From NCBI GenBank assembly GCA_021108185.1, contig JAIORJ010000142.1:1-52518 (forward strand): a stretch of 52,518 nt of DNA. The letters run 5' to 3'. The notes beneath the pieces are model-generated. The model was not told the DNA's origin, did no database searches, and was given only the letters and a program-made list of their open reading frames with translations. The position numbers and the translations under genes were made by a program. Below, piece after piece: positions 20,949 to 49,563 of this stretch. This stretch comes from Methanococcoides sp. (GTDB lineage Archaea; Halobacteriota; Methanosarcinia; Methanosarcinales; Methanosarcinaceae). Numbering within the stretch: position 1 is the stretch's first letter; every line of letters begins with the position of its first letter.

Positions 20949-21578
20949 ATGTTTATAGGACACTATGCAATTGGATTCTTATTAAAAAAGAAATTTAATG
21001 CAATTCCTTTATGGGTGTTCTTTATTGCAGTCCAGGTTGTCGATATTCTGGCATTTATCTTGGTTTTGCTTGGTGTGGAAAAAATGAGCTATAATCCCAC
21101 GTCTAATCCTTTCCTAAGAACTTCGATGGACTATATCCCGTTAACTCATTCTTTATCGAACAGTTTGGTTATTGCTCTTATTGTTTTCCTGGTCTTTTGG
21201 AAACTAAAGGATAGGGAATGGGGAATTGCACTCTCAATGGGGGTACTGTCACACTGGTTTATTGATTTCATAGCTCACACACCGGATATGCCCCTTATTT
21301 TCAACAGCTATAAAGTTGGTCTGGGATTGTGGAACTATCCCTGGATAGCTTTTTTACTTGAAGTTGGTTTTTTCATTGGAGCCGGATATTATCTTTACAA
21401 AGGTTCTGAGAACCTTAAACGACCGATCATTCTAATGGCTCTTTTAGTTCTTTTTTATGCTCCAACAATGTTCGCACCAGAAGAGGAAGTGCCTGTAGCA
21501 GTAATGAGTATTTTAAGTTTGAGTTTCTACATAATATTCGCAGCCTTGGCTTGGTGGAGTGAGAAAAAGAAGAAATGA
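20949..21578 (+). CDS. Membrane-bound metal-dependent hydrolase-like protein (YdjM/DUF457 type)
   Basis: This 209-residue polytopic membrane protein starts MFIGHYAIGF and has a His/Asp set placed between helices: H5, VVDI, LTHSLSNS, and SHWFIDFIAHTPDMP. That arrangement matches the YdjM/DUF457 family of predicted membrane-embedded metal-dependent hydrolases. Five to six helices are evident and the tail is lysine-rich. The ATG follows AAAGGGATGG. Physiological role unknown; it is the second such protein within 2 kb, after the DUF2227 gene. Confidence 0.7.
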   Translation: MFIGHYAIGFLLKKKFNAIPLWVFFIAVQVVDILAFILVLLGVEKMSYNPTSNPFLRTSMDYIPLTHSLSNSLVIALIVFLVFWKLKDREWGIALSMGVLSHWFIDFIAHTPDMPLIFNSYKVGLGLWNYPWIAFLLEVGFFIGAGYYLYKGSENLKRPIILMALLVLFYAPTMFAPEEEVPVAVMSILSLSFYIIFAALAWWSEKKKK

Positions 21579-21629
21579 TGGGGTCGTAAGAAGCTTGTTT
21601 GATCCCGTTCGATGTGATCGTTAGGCTGA

Positions 21630-22271
21630 TCAGATAATTCCAACCAACCTTGAGATCTTTAGAGCTACTTCTCCTGCCAAAAAGGTAACACTTCTAACAA
21701 ATCCTACAGGTTCTATCTTAATAGCACCACTGTCATAGGCGTCTATAAATGTGTCAGCAGGCGTTTCAGATTCCATTATGCTTCTGATCGTATCTTCATT
21801 TGATATTACCACGACCGTTGGATCCACTTCAGAGCTCAGGCCTACTACAGATTGTAGTATTATCCTTGCATCCAGGGATGTGACAGCTCCACTATCATCA
21901 ACATCGACATTTGGGTCTTCTTCCATCTTCCCGGTAGACATCTTCAGTGCACACAGGGAATCCACAGCACTTAGATAACCATCCCCATTGCAGTCACCCT
22001 TTTCAGCTTCGATCTTGATTCCCACTTTATGGAATTCTACAATCGTAGCATCCTTTGTAACCATTTTTAGTTCTAGTGCACTTCCATCATTTAGCTCTAT
22101 AATACCATAGATCTCTTCATTTCCAAGAAGATCCTTCAGAAAATCCGGGACCTTATCTACATTCTGATTATATGCCACGACCCTCTGATTCATATCGTCA
22201 AATAGGTCTGCTGATGCTGGGTTTGCCAAAAAGATGAAAAGTAGAAATGAGATAATGATGATCTTCTTCAT
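21630..22271 (-). CDS. Secreted protein with dockerin domain inserted in a split host domain
   Basis: This 213-residue exported protein has a signal peptide to about residue 21. A first domain half (about 26-88: YNQNVDKVPDFLKDLLGNE, IIELNDGSALELKMVTKD) is followed by a type I dockerin (92-144: GDCNGDGYLSAVDSL and VDVDDSGAVTSLDAR, two Ca-binding F-hand repeats). A second half follows (149-200: DPTVVVISNEDTIRSIMES, GAIKIEPVGFV). The flanking halves look like one methanogen surface domain into which the dockerin was inserted. It has no membrane anchor, so attachment would come from the dockerin binding a cohesin, and two cohesins are encoded directly upstream, 12 bp and one gene away. GGGGGTG precedes the ATG. 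Confidence 0.85.
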   Translation of the reverse strand: MKKIIIISFLLFIFLANPASADLFDDMNQRVVAYNQNVDKVPDFLKDLLGNEEIYGIIELNDGSALELKMVTKDATIVEFHKVGIKIEAEKGDCNGDGYLSAVDSLCALKMSTGKMEEDPNVDVDDSGAVTSLDARIILQSVVGLSSEVDPTVVVISNEDTIRSIMESETPADTFIDAYDSGAIKIEPVGFVRSVTFLAGEVALKISRLVGII

Positions 22272-22283
22272 TTCTACACCCCC

Positions 22284-22826
22284 TTACCTTCTTCTCTTGA
22301 CAACGAACAGAGCCATGACGATCGCTGCCATTGTCATCAACAACATGCTTCCATAACCTGCACTTTCTGAAGCTTTCTCGGTAACACTGAGAGTTCCGTC
22401 AATGGTGGGAGAAATAACTTCAACAAGATCAGTATTGTGAACTGATACATCACTCAGGGTCAGGGTACTGGATGACCCTACCGCACCGAGAACTTCAAAT
22501 GATACGACTGCGACCGCACCATCACCAGTTATGCCGGAAGAGTCTGCCAGGGCAATTATGACCTCTCCTTCATTACCTGTATTGGACTCGAGATATGCAT
22601 TTCCACCAAGTTCACCGGCCTCTACACCTACAGCTTGTAGAACTGCCGAATCATACATCAGGGAAATGTCCATACTTCCCACATCTATAGCTCCTTCAAG
22701 GTTGATAGGAACCTCCACTATACCCCCGGCTGCGCCTGTTGTATCGCTCACACTAACAGTCAGGTCTTGTGCCGATGCAAGAGATACAAGGCACAACAGA
22801 CTAACTAACAACAATATCCTTTTCAT
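22284..22826 (-). CDS. Membrane-anchored cohesin protein
   Basis: The 180-residue exported protein has a signal peptide (1-19), one cohesin domain (about 21-148: VSVSDTTGAAGGIVEVPINL, VGSMDISLMYDSAVLQAVGV, GDGAVAVVSFEVLG, the jelly-roll pattern of scaffoldin cohesins) and a C-terminal helix at about 160-176 followed by KRRR. The tail AGYGSMLLM...KRRR is reminiscent of archaeal C-terminal sorting signals. It would display a single dockerin receptor on the outer face of the membrane. Middle gene of the cohesin-dockerin operon, 15 bp after the scaffold gene; GGGAGTGG precedes the ATG. Confidence 0.88.
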   Translation of the reverse strand: MKRILLLVSLLCLVSLASAQDLTVSVSDTTGAAGGIVEVPINLEGAIDVGSMDISLMYDSAVLQAVGVEAGELGGNAYLESNTGNEGEVIIALADSSGITGDGAVAVVSFEVLGAVGSSSTLTLSDVSVHNTDLVEVISPTIDGTLSVTEKASESAGYGSMLLMTMAAIVMALFVVKRRR

Positions 22827-22841
22827 GTTACCACTCCCATT

Positions 22842-25271
22842 TCAAGACAATTTGGCAGAATTTCTCAGTATCTGCCTTGCATCAATTGATGTTACACTTC
22901 CATCTCCATTCACATCCATAGCCAGATCTTCCGGTATCTTTCCCACAGCCATCTGGAGTGCATACAGAGCATCCAGAGCTGTAAGTTCACCACCGTCACC
23001 AACGGCATCTCCTTTGCTTTCCTCCAGACTGATCACCTTGAATACTCCGTCCTTAGCAGGAATTTTGACGGGTGTCAGATCTGCCCTGTTTGCAGACAGA
23101 GATACAATATCAAGAGCGGTGGATGAGCCTTCAGCTCCGACCACATCAAATCTTACGTGAGCAACAGAGCCATCACCGGAGAATCCATCCTTATCAGCAA
23201 AACTGATCTTGATCGTACCGTCAATGATATTGTAATCGAACAGTGAATCGCTTGATAAACTACCTTTAACAACTTCAGTAGCTACAAGGACAGAGGAATC
23301 ATATCTCAGTGTCATATCCATATTTCCAATATTCTCCCGTACTCCATACAATGTCAGAGGGATCTGGACACTGCTTCCGGTAGCCTTGCTACGGGATTCA
23401 AAGGTCAGGCCATTGAACCTGTCAATTACAGGATCCTGAGTCGGGGTTGGAGTCGGGCCCGGAACCGTTGATCCCTGGCGAATGGAGTTGATCTCACTTT
23501 GTGAAAGAGCAACATTATAGATCCTCACCTCATCAATGATCCCTGAGAAATAGCCTCCATAGGAAGGATTGGATGCAATATTGGTATAATCCCAGCCGTT
23601 ACTCAGTTTGCCTTTTTCTTGATACACCTTATCATTTACGTACAATGTCACTGTTTCAGCATCCTGGTCATAAACCGCTGCAAGGAAAGTCCATTCTCCG
23701 GTTGTGACAGGCTGGAATCCCAGAACACCACCTGTGCCACTAAATGCAGACCAACCAGCTCCCCCGCCACGAGTATCGAAACCTATCGTACGATCAAAAC
23801 CCCCATTATCATGTGAAATGACGGATCTCGCAACATCTGCCTGAGCCCAGGCAACCATGGTCAGTTGTGGCATATTATCCGGATTTATGTTGACAGGTGA
23901 ACGAACGTAGTCATTCGTTCCGTCAAAGCTCAATGCCTGATTCCTTACTCCAGATACAAAGACAGCGCCATTGTTGGTTCCATGGTTATTGTTGCCGGAA
24001 TAATCCCTTGCATCACCATCAAAAGGATAGTAGGCAACAAGGCCCCTCTCAGAAATGGGTGTTGGGCTTGGAGTAGGTGTCGAGCCCGGAACTGTTGCTC
24101 CCTGACGAATGGAGTTGATCTCGCTTTGTGAAAGAGCAACATTATAGATCCTCACCTCATCAATGATGCCTGAGAAATAGCCTCCATAGGAAGGATTGGA
24201 TGCAATATTGGTATAATCCCAGCCGTTACTCAGTTTGCCTTTTTCTTCATATACCTTATCATCTACGTACAGTTTCACAGTTTCAGCATCCTGATCATAA
24301 ACTGCCGCTATGAAAGTCCATTCTCCGGTTGTGACAGGAGAGAATCCTAAAACAGCCCCTGTACCACTAAATGCAGACCAACCAGCTCCCCCGCCACGGG
24401 TATCGAAACCTATCGTACGATCATAACCCCCGTTATCATGTGAAATAACGGTTCTCGATTCAGCATCAGACTGAACCCAGGCAACCATGGTCAGTTGTGG
24501 CATATTATCCGGATTGATGTTAACAGGTGAACGCACGTAATCGTCCTTACCGTCAAAGCTCAATGCCTGATTCCTTACTCCGGATACAAAGACGGCACCA
24601 TTGTTGGTTCCATGGTTATTATTGCCGGAATAATCCTTTACATCGCCATCAAAAGGATAGTAGGCAACAAGCCCTTTCTCAGAAATAGGTGTTGGGCTTG
24701 GAGTAGGAGTAGGTGTTGGACCTACTGCCGATGGATCCATCAGACCAAAGAAATAGACTGTCACGTGATCCTCGCCTTCAAGAGAACCAATCATTCCCAT
24801 ATTTTCCACCCTTATGGTGTGGATACCTCTATCCAGACCGGATATCTCCAGGTACTTAACAAATGCACCACCCGGATAAGCGGGATCACTTCCATAAGTG
24901 TTTCCGATCCATACCTCTGAACCATCAACAAGAACACGTGCCCAGCCATCATTGGTGTCACCCCAGAACTGGACACCTACTGTGGTCGTTTCAACGGTTG
25001 TCTTTGCTTCGATCCAATTACCCTGATTCAACAACGCGATCCACTGATTATATCGCCAGATCGAACCACTGGTTGTGATCTGGAACTCGGATGGAGGTGT
25101 AACATATGCCGTATTGGCAAAGGCTACAACATCCGGTGGAGTTGCAAAATTAAGGGCATTTCCATCATACATTACAGTGCTAACTTCTGCAGAAGCAACT
25201 GTCACAGCCATAGACAAAATTGCTAAAGAAATAAAAAGAACATACAATAATCTCTTTGTGGTATTTTTCAT
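22842..25271 (-). CDS. Scaffold-like surface protein: jelly-roll domain, two LamG, cohesin, dockerin
   Basis: This 809-residue exported protein has a signal peptide (1-28), then an unassigned beta-rich domain (about 30-180, with GDTNDGWARVLVDGSEVW). Pro-Thr linkers separate two LamG/concanavalin-like domains (about 198-390 and 408-600). A cohesin follows (about 615-748: GSSVQIPLTLYG, MDMTLRYDSSVLVATEV, GDGSVAHVRFDV), and a C-terminal type I dockerin (about 755-806: DAVGDGGELTALDAL, DVNGDGSVTSIDAR). The LamG domains are near copies. Carrying both cohesin and dockerin, it can bridge the anchored cohesin downstream and the dockerin protein after that. It is first gene of the operon; a TATA box lies at 25363-25371. 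Confidence 0.9.
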   Translation of the reverse strand: MKNTTKRLLYVLFISLAILSMAVTVASAEVSTVMYDGNALNFATPPDVVAFANTAYVTPPSEFQITTSGSIWRYNQWIALLNQGNWIEAKTTVETTTVGVQFWGDTNDGWARVLVDGSEVWIGNTYGSDPAYPGGAFVKYLEISGLDRGIHTIRVENMGMIGSLEGEDHVTVYFFGLMDPSAVGPTPTPTPSPTPISEKGLVAYYPFDGDVKDYSGNNNHGTNNGAVFVSGVRNQALSFDGKDDYVRSPVNINPDNMPQLTMVAWVQSDAESRTVISHDNGGYDRTIGFDTRGGGAGWSAFSGTGAVLGFSPVTTGEWTFIAAVYDQDAETVKLYVDDKVYEEKGKLSNGWDYTNIASNPSYGGYFSGIIDEVRIYNVALSQSEINSIRQGATVPGSTPTPSPTPISERGLVAYYPFDGDARDYSGNNNHGTNNGAVFVSGVRNQALSFDGTNDYVRSPVNINPDNMPQLTMVAWAQADVARSVISHDNGGFDRTIGFDTRGGGAGWSAFSGTGGVLGFQPVTTGEWTFLAAVYDQDAETVTLYVNDKVYQEKGKLSNGWDYTNIASNPSYGGYFSGIIDEVRIYNVALSQSEINSIRQGSTVPGPTPTPTQDPVIDRFNGLTFESRSKATGSSVQIPLTLYGVRENIGNMDMTLRYDSSVLVATEVVKGSLSSDSLFDYNIIDGTIKISFADKDGFSGDGSVAHVRFDVVGAEGSSTALDIVSLSANRADLTPVKIPAKDGVFKVISLEESKGDAVGDGGELTALDALYALQMAVGKIPEDLAMDVNGDGSVTSIDARQILRNSAKLS
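23451..24698 (-). repeat. Tandem 0.63-kb duplication encoding the two LamG domains
   Basis: Two direct copies, plus 24069-24698 (first in the protein) and 23451-24068, encode residues about 192-401 and 402-607. Blocks such as LVAYYPFDGD, NINPDNMPQLTMVAW and GGYFSGIIDEVRIYNVALSQ are identical at a 210-residue offset, with only scattered substitutions. The DNA copies are also nearly identical, pointing to recent duplication or gene conversion. Confidence 0.9.
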
Positions 25272-25649
25272 ATTTTGTCCCCCACGAACAAATACTTTTT
25301 ACATTGGAATGTTTGTGACTAATAATTGTTAAAAAGAACCCTCTGACCATTAGAAGAAAAATGATATAAATCTACGGTACTGTCAAATTCAAATTATAAC
25401 AACTTTGACTCCATACCCACCGATTCTGCTTTATTTAGAGACGTTACTAAAAGTGGAAAGCTTACAATCACGCCTTTAATCCTCTTGAGAACTTCAATGG
25501 ACAAGGTATGCGGGCAATTTTTACCTATAAAAAAGTTCTGAAATATCGTTATCGCAATATTGAAATTAAATATCAACAATGAGCATTAATCTGGCATGTC
25601 ATTTTCTTTGCTCATAGCATTCAGGTGTATTTTGATCTTAGGTGGTATT
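25272..25649. other. Intergenic region with the cohesin-operon promoter
   Basis: This AT-rich spacer lies between the divergent cohesin operon and the GNAT gene. A minus-strand TATA box (GATTTATATC, plus 25363-25372) lies about 95 bp before the scaffold start and implies a leader of about 70 bases; GGGGGAC forms the ribosome site. A short minus-strand open frame at 25394-25579 shows no family features. I see no RNA gene. Confidence 0.45.
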
Positions 25650-48966: not shown

Positions 48967-49053
48967 TCAGATGTTATGGTTAATTGTCTACACCATGAAT
49001 ATTTATATTCTTAGTGAGAAACGTATTAGCAGTTAGAAAAAGTGGTGATCAAA

Positions 49054-49563
49054 ATGAACTATAAAATAATTACTGTATTGCTGTTAGCAATGATACTTTT
49101 GATAAGTGCACCCACGGTGTCAGCGAAACACAGCTATTTGGAAGATTTCAATCAGCAATATGATACCGGAGATACAAAGCTGGACTCATGTGATACATGC
49201 CACGAAGTTCAAGATATTGAATCCATAAATCCTTATGGAGAGGCATATCATCAAAATGGAAAAAATCTAGCTTCTATCGAAGCTCTTGACTCGGATGGAG
49301 ATGGATTCACCAATCTGGATGAGATTAATGCTCTGACATTCCCGGGAGATGCTAATGATTACTCGATGACTGACTCTGAAACCGTACCGGAAACGACCGA
49401 CGATGTGACTGAGCCATCAGACGATCCCAGTGAAGAACAGCCAGCTGAAGAATCAAGCGGCGACACAGCAGATGACCAAAAGACACTAGGATTTGAAATG
49501 ATTTTTGCTGTTGTTGGGGTATTAGCAGTCGTTGGTTTGAAGAAAAGGGGATATATAAAATAA
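49054..49563 (+). CDS. Anchored extracellular monohaem cytochrome c-like protein
   Basis: The 169-residue exported protein has a signal peptide (1-24), one CxxCH haem motif (CDTCH, 46-50) followed by NPYGEAYHQNGK, and a thrombospondin-type-3-like Ca repeat (DSDGDGFTNLDEI, about 79-91). A long Glu/Ser/Thr linker ends in a C-terminal helix (145-162) with the tail KKRGYIK. It would hold one covalent haem at the outer face. The start is ATG at 49054 with GGTGATC upstream. Possible role: extracellular electron transfer. No cytochrome-maturation genes are nearby. Confidence 0.8.
   Translation: MNYKIITVLLLAMILLISAPTVSAKHSYLEDFNQQYDTGDTKLDSCDTCHEVQDIESINPYGEAYHQNGKNLASIEALDSDGDGFTNLDEINALTFPGDANDYSMTDSETVPETTDDVTEPSDDPSEEQPAEESSGDTADDQKTLGFEMIFAVVGVLAVVGLKKRGYIK

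What the first reader, a model, noticed from the sequence alone, without database searches (positions are those of the whole stretch)
21630..25271. Compact cohesin-dockerin operon that could build a miniature cellulosome-like surface complex in a methanogen
Three genes, 12-15 bp apart on one strand, encode a scaffold (beta domain, LamG-LamG, cohesin, dockerin), a membrane-anchored cohesin and a secreted dockerin protein without its own anchor. Domain logic gives an obvious chain: anchor cohesin binds scaffold dockerin, and scaffold cohesin binds the third protein. Cohesins and dockerins in archaea are known in general, but I know of no description of a three-gene anchor/bridge/client unit in a methylotrophic methanogen. 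LamG domains suggest binding to polysaccharide or cell surfaces; no catalytic domain is present, so it may serve adhesion, biofilm or S-layer assembly rather than degradation.
Basis: partly seen in the sequence, partly recalled or inferred. Interest (0 to 1): 0.78.

Follow-up and report, generated by a model that had tools for sequence, protein, structure and literature searches.

The report
Archaeal three-gene cohesin-dockerin surface chain
Three neighbouring genes in a methane-making archaeon encode proteins that should plug into one another, cellulosome-style, to form a chain on the cell surface; the same three-gene set recurs in distant archaea and adds a third partner to a known but unexplained two-gene pair of Archaeoglobus, so its purpose can now be tested.

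Summary
Three minus-strand genes, 12 and 15 bp apart, encode a bridge (LamG-LamG-cohesin-dockerin), a cohesin with a C-terminal membrane helix (anchor) and a secreted dockerin protein (client). Both cohesins pass Pfam. The dockerins score weakly in Pfam but strongly with a lineage model.

Beyond the finding:
- Bridge-anchor-client order recurs in 16 loci: ten in Methanosarcinaceae including the window, one in another family (G133), and five in the family of Archaeoglobus fulgidus. A 17th locus (G348) is degenerate.
- Anchor and bridge cohesins form two ancient clades. The A. fulgidus AF2375/AF2376 pair, whose anchor cohesin and bridge dockerin bind strongly (PMC9705933), is the same locus without a client.
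- The client is not just a dockerin. It is an unnamed, widespread archaeal secreted domain (perhaps SCP2-like) that took up a dockerin twice independently: inside a loop here, at the N terminus in Archaeoglobaceae.
- The window's genome has exactly two cohesins and two dockerins of this kind, all in this cassette, and a congener lacks the whole block cleanly.

Likely function: a Ca-dependent, non-catalytic surface adhesion or display chain capped by the client. Client binding, chain formation and function are inferred. Both AlphaFold jobs failed.

The parts
22842..25271 (-). Bridge gene (809 aa): signal peptide, N-terminal beta domain, LamG, LamG, cohesin, dockerin
24732..25187 (-). Bridge N-terminal beta-rich domain (residues 29-180), no Pfam family; recurs in other bridges (L029-L032, L034)
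24096..24677 (-). LamG domain 1 (residues 199-392)
23466..24047 (-). LamG domain 2 (residues 409-602), 91% identical to domain 1 at protein level (recent tandem duplication)
23022..23426 (-). Bridge cohesin (residues 616-750)
22848..23015 (-). Bridge dockerin (residues 753-808); second Ca loop canonical, first loop one residue longer and degenerate
22284..22826 (-). Anchor gene (180 aa): signal peptide, cohesin, C-terminal membrane helix
22377..22769 (-). Anchor cohesin (residues 20-150)
22287..22355 (-). Anchor C-terminal membrane helix plus KRRR (residues 158-180)
   Evidence: Archaeoglobaceae homologues carry PGF-CTERM-like tails
21630..22271 (-). Client gene (213 aa): signal peptide, conserved secreted core domain split by an inserted dockerin
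22023..22208 (-). Client core domain, first half (residues 22-83)
21837..22001 (-). Client dockerin (residues 91-145), both Ca loops canonical
21633..21830 (-). Client core domain, second half (residues 148-213)
21571..25507 (.). Block absent from a congener (G016, locus L151), where 25 bp stand in its place between flanks 88-89% identical to the window's

Best explanation
The cassette encodes a small, closed cohesin-dockerin chain on the archaeal cell surface. The anchor, held by its C-terminal helix (a PGF-CTERM-like tail in Archaeoglobaceae homologues), offers one cohesin. The bridge docks onto it through its C-terminal dockerin and presents LamG and other sugar- or surface-binding domains plus one new cohesin. 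That cohesin takes either another bridge or the client. The client has a dockerin but no cohesin, so it ends the chain and displays a conserved secreted domain. Ca2+ is needed because dockerin folds around Ca2+. The most likely role is adhesion to, or organisation of, extracellular material, not polymer degradation. Shown: gene order, domains, ancient anchor/bridge split, closed set, clean presence/absence; in the A. fulgidus homologue, anchor cohesin binds bridge dockerin (published). Inferred: bridge cohesin binds client dockerin, chain growth, adhesion role, what the client domain does.
For: Bridge-anchor-client order, with gaps of -4 to 28 bp on either side of the anchor, in the window, L029-L037, L051, L060-L063 and L065 (in L037 the anchor is at G041:C1:1791605-1792141). 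Anchor and bridge cohesins are each one side of a branch, 98/95 support, in 96% of bootstrap trees. L069 contains the crystallised A. fulgidus cohesin 2xdh as its bridge cohesin at near identity, so L069 is AF2375/AF2376; PMC9705933 reports strong specific AfuCoh76-AfuDoc75 binding, i.e. anchor cohesin to bridge dockerin. In the window's genome the only dockerins (2) and cohesins (2) of this type lie in this cassette. A congener lacks the entire block. None of the 20 bridges scanned has a catalytic Pfam domain; accessory domains are LamG, AbfB, F5/8-type C, PD40, FG-GAP and FecR. The core domain gained a dockerin twice (joint clade rejected, p-AU 0.0005).
Against: No binding data for any Methanosarcinaceae member. 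The window's bridge dockerin has one degenerate Ca loop. The cassette does not visibly enforce who binds whom: both dockerin types look alike at the loop-end positions that usually set specificity, so the client could dock straight onto the anchor. AlphaFold models of client and bridge failed (mean pLDDT 34.5 and 28.5), so no structural support was obtained. A. fulgidus and some Methanosarcinaceae keep bridge and anchor without a client.
Confidence: 0.6

Rival explanations
1. No chain: bridge and client are alternative, competing ligands of the anchor cohesin, and the bridge cohesin serves another purpose such as homo-oligomerisation. The cassette then displays two different modules on one type of anchor.
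For: Client and bridge dockerins share the same loop-end motifs (TALDAL / TS[IL]DAR) and are 52% identical. From memory of the A. fulgidus literature, both cohesins bind the one dockerin and the bridge cohesin can self-associate.
Against: The bridge cohesin is conserved as a separate clade beside the anchor cohesin throughout, and bridge copies multiply within cassettes (1-3 per locus), which a bare anchor-ligand scheme does not need.
Confidence: 0.22
2. Cohesin and dockerin folds here are relics or generic beta-sandwich/EF-hand modules that no longer bind one another; the proteins are ordinary adhesins or S-layer accessories.
For: Dockerins are weak in Pfam and the window's bridge dockerin has a degenerate first loop.
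Against: Canonical loops in 16/17 (loop 1) and 15/17 (loop 2) clients and in 26/36 and 33/36 bridges; strict pairing of both modules in one cassette; measured binding in the A. fulgidus homologue; two independent gains of dockerin by the client domain.
Confidence: 0.1
3. The client domain is itself a membrane- or lipid-binding (SCP2-like) module, so the client is a second, non-covalent attachment point or a lipid carrier rather than just the cap of a chain. This can hold together with the best explanation.
For: Core versus archaeal SCP2 profile scores 22.7 against 11.1 +/- 2.5 for column shuffles, maximum 20.1 of 100; one weak hit to SCP2-related Alkyl_sulf_C, E 0.11; the core is found at the C terminus of a C13-peptidase-like protein, as a targeting domain might be.
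Against: hhalign probability only 9%; no Pfam family reached; no usable model.
Confidence: 0.3
4. The complex scaffolds secreted enzymes, as a true cellulosome does.
For: Same module logic; carbohydrate-binding type domains in bridges.
Against: No dockerin of this type outside the cassette in the window's genome or in most others searched, so there is nothing catalytic to recruit; no glycoside hydrolase domain in the bridges scanned.
Confidence: 0.05

Closest known systems
Archaeoglobus fulgidus AF2375/AF2376 (noncellulosomal archaeal cohesin-dockerin pair; PDB 2xdh)
   Same: Homologous locus: bridge with cohesin and dockerin next to a cohesin-membrane anchor; cohesins fall in the same two clades.
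   Different: A. fulgidus has no client beside the pair and its bridge N-terminal part matches a PD40 repeat, not LamG. The third gene and the unit's spread are not in the papers I could search.
Bacterial cellulosome
   Same: Cohesin-dockerin plugging, surface anchor, carbohydrate-binding type domains.
   Different: One cohesin per bridge, no catalytic subunits, closed three-protein set, membrane-helix anchor.
ANME dockerin/cohesin proteins (PMC9012536, PMC5244752)
   Same: Non-cellulosomal archaeal cohesins and dockerins, proposed for surface organisation.
   Different: ANME have many dockerins and multi-cohesin scaffoldins (up to 5 cohesins), with ABC-transporter binding proteins as dockerin carriers; here a minimal cassette with one dedicated client.

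Membership tests
Archaeal noncellulosomal cohesin-dockerin pair (AF2375/AF2376 type) | Bridge protein with cohesin followed by C-terminal dockerin | tested here: met
Archaeal noncellulosomal cohesin-dockerin pair (AF2375/AF2376 type) | Adjacent secreted cohesin protein with C-terminal membrane segment, in the same cohesin clade as AF2376 | tested here: met
Archaeal noncellulosomal cohesin-dockerin pair (AF2375/AF2376 type) | Measured Ca-dependent cohesin-dockerin binding | not testable with these tools
   binding published only for A. fulgidus (PMC9705933)
Cellulosome | Scaffoldin with several cohesins | tested here: not met
   one cohesin per bridge in the cassette loci
Cellulosome | Dockerin-bearing catalytic subunits | tested here: not met
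   in G000 only two dockerins of this type, neither on an enzyme; no catalytic Pfam domain in bridges. A different dockerin lies in the 1055-aa protein on C4, whose other domains were not identified
SCP2 domain family (client core) | Significant profile match to SCP2 | tested here: inconclusive
   no Pfam hit; HMM-HMM score above all 100 shuffles but probability 9%

The most novel reading that the evidence does not exclude
A mobile archaeal three-gene module builds a self-limiting, Ca-dependent linear chain on the cell surface (anchor, n bridges, one cap). Its cap is an uncharacterised secreted domain that two archaeal lineages independently converted into a dockerin client, once by inserting the dockerin inside the domain's fold. 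A. fulgidus AF2375/AF2376, called an enigmatic vestige since 1999, would be a remnant of it.
Probability: 0.45. Interest if true: 0.75.

Novelty: new variant of a known kind. Interest (0 to 1): 0.55.

Why it matters
The function of archaeal cohesins has stayed unclear since the A. fulgidus pair was described; PMC11452385 says so again in 2024. Placing that pair inside a conserved three-gene unit, with a dedicated third partner gained twice independently, turns an open question into a small testable system: four modules, one cassette, genera with culturable members, and a congener that naturally lacks it. It could also supply new orthogonal cohesin-dockerin pairs.

Tried and rejected
PDB profile search with the core domain found nothing credible. 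hhalign of the core against SCP2 is suggestive only. PADLOC gave no hit, so a defence role has no support. The promoter/terminator scan uses a bacterial consensus and is not informative for an archaeon. A plain 'cellulosome' reading was rejected for lack of a multi-cohesin scaffold and of enzymes. A single origin of the dockerin clients was rejected by a tree test.

Full report
What is there. Three minus-strand genes lie 15 and 12 bp apart: 22842-25271 (809 aa), 22284-22826 (180 aa) and 21630-22271 (213 aa). Pfam finds two LamG domains (2e-33) and a cohesin (6e-15) in the first and a cohesin (3e-16) in the second. Dockerin_1 is only weak in the first and third (0.002, 0.0006), but in the genome search both reach the curated cut-off with their repeat neighbours. 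An alignment of dockerins from this lineage (which includes both window dockerins) finds them at 2e-28. The best solved relative of both cohesins is 2xdh, the A. fulgidus noncellulosomal cohesin. The second protein ends in a hydrophobic helix and KRRR.

The third protein is more than a dockerin. Residues 1-83 and 146-213 match stand-alone proteins of about 150-170 aa; 90 of 112 genomes of the family have a match to the client, often several per genome, and the dockerin lies between the two matching halves. The stand-alone relatives have a short linker at that point; one relative (L042) has a different insertion there. The family has no Pfam entry. It occurs across the phylum, in 134 of 386 genomes sampled, and as the C-terminal part of a C13-peptidase-like protein in the A. 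fulgidus family. A profile comparison with archaeal SCP2 proteins scores above all 100 column shuffles (22.7 versus mean 11.1, sd 2.5, max 20.1), and a forced global alignment keeps one register over 120 columns, but the probability is low (9%). I treat 'SCP2-like' as a hypothesis.

The unit is conserved. I fetched the neighbourhoods of the full-length clients and of distant matches. The order bridge(s)-anchor-client, with small or overlapping gaps, is found in ten Methanosarcinaceae loci of eight genomes (window, L029-L037), in a genome of another family (G133, L051), and in five loci of the f8 family (L060-L063, L065) (the L037 anchor is placed). L052 (G348) is a degenerate version whose upstream cohesin gene lacks a detected dockerin. 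Two of these Methanosarcinaceae loci sit in records that the collection names: a Methanococcoides (L043) and a Methanolobus (L044). Bridges vary in number (1-3) and in N-terminal domains: LamG, AbfB, F5/8-type C, PD40, FG-GAP, FecR; none of the 20 scanned has a catalytic Pfam domain.

Link to the known pair. L069 in genome G216 contains the sequence of 2xdh at near identity in its 506-aa bridge, followed by a 190-aa cohesin with a C-terminal tail; this is AF2375/AF2376, and identifies f8 as the family of A. fulgidus. PMC9705933 states that the dockerin is in ORF2375 (residues 432-506) and the cohesin in ORF2376 (29-162), and that the pair binds strongly and specifically. In the present terms: anchor cohesin binds bridge dockerin. 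A maximum-likelihood tree of 57 cohesins separates anchors from bridges with 98/95 support, and both clades contain Methanosarcinaceae and A. fulgidus-family members. The anchor/bridge division is therefore old, or the unit travelled together. A. fulgidus itself has no client beside the pair; its relatives do. Several f8 anchors end in PGF-CTERM-like tails (one over the curated cut-off), the signal of archaeosortase substrates.

Convergence on the client. In Methanosarcinaceae and G133 the dockerin is inside the core domain; in f8 clients it precedes it. A tree of 76 core domains gives each client type as its own clade (97/92 and 98/94), and holding them together is rejected (p-AU 0.0005; few columns and some long branches, so with caution). 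Two lineages thus seem to have joined the same domain to a dockerin independently and placed it in the same operon position. This is the strongest sign that the client domain matters to the system.

A closed, separable set. In the window's genome the only two dockerins of this type and the only two cohesins of this type are in the cassette. Pfam finds three further, more distant cohesins and one further dockerin elsewhere. In congener G016 the flanks match the window at 88-89% identity, but 25 bp replace window 21571-25507, so the three genes are present or absent as one block. Whether this is a gain or a loss is not resolved. Cassette G+C is 0.452 against 0.392 in the flanks (that script stopped later on an unrelated error, after printing this).

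How it most likely works. One cohesin per anchor and per bridge, one dockerin per bridge and per client, gives only linear assemblies: anchor, any number of bridges, client as cap; or anchor-client directly. The first link is shown in the A. fulgidus homologue; the rest is inferred. The bridge domains and the lack of enzymes favour adhesion or surface organisation.

Known versus new. The two-gene core is known, and cohesins and dockerins in ANME archaea have been surveyed (PMC9012536, PMC5244752). PMC11452385 repeats that the function of the A. fulgidus cohesins is unclear. In the open-access library I found no description of the third gene, the conserved unit, or the nested dockerin; subscription papers such as Peer et al. 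2009 could not be read, so novelty is limited to what was searchable. Verdict: new variant of a known kind.

Noticed in passing
L139:3446-5728 and L140:1641-3923 (f8 genomes): The uncharacterised core domain is the C-terminal part of a 760-aa secreted protein with a Peptidase_C13-like region, so it is a mobile domain, possibly a surface-targeting one.
   Followed up: partly
L142:1095-2126 and L143:1826-3007: The same core domain ends secreted proteins that carry an HELVH motif (zinc-peptidase-like) but match no Pfam family.
   Followed up: no
L057:8187-11471 (G020): The anchor cohesin and its membrane tail are fused to a 1094-aa open frame in another Methanococcoides genome.
   Followed up: no
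window 23466-24677: The two LamG domains of the bridge are 91% identical, a recent tandem duplication also present in the congener G023.
   Followed up: partly
G023:C3:167069-167356 (L029): The gene next to the cassette (window 20949-21578, multi-pass membrane protein) is a broken remnant with several stops in G023, whose cassette has an extra bridge.
   Followed up: no
G000:C4 (L038:3594-6761): A 1055-aa protein elsewhere in the genome carries a different cohesin and a Pfam-strong dockerin, apparently a separate system.
   Followed up: no
window 49042-49563: Secreted protein with one CxxCH haem motif followed by a DSDGDG calcium-type loop and a C-terminal membrane helix.
   Followed up: no
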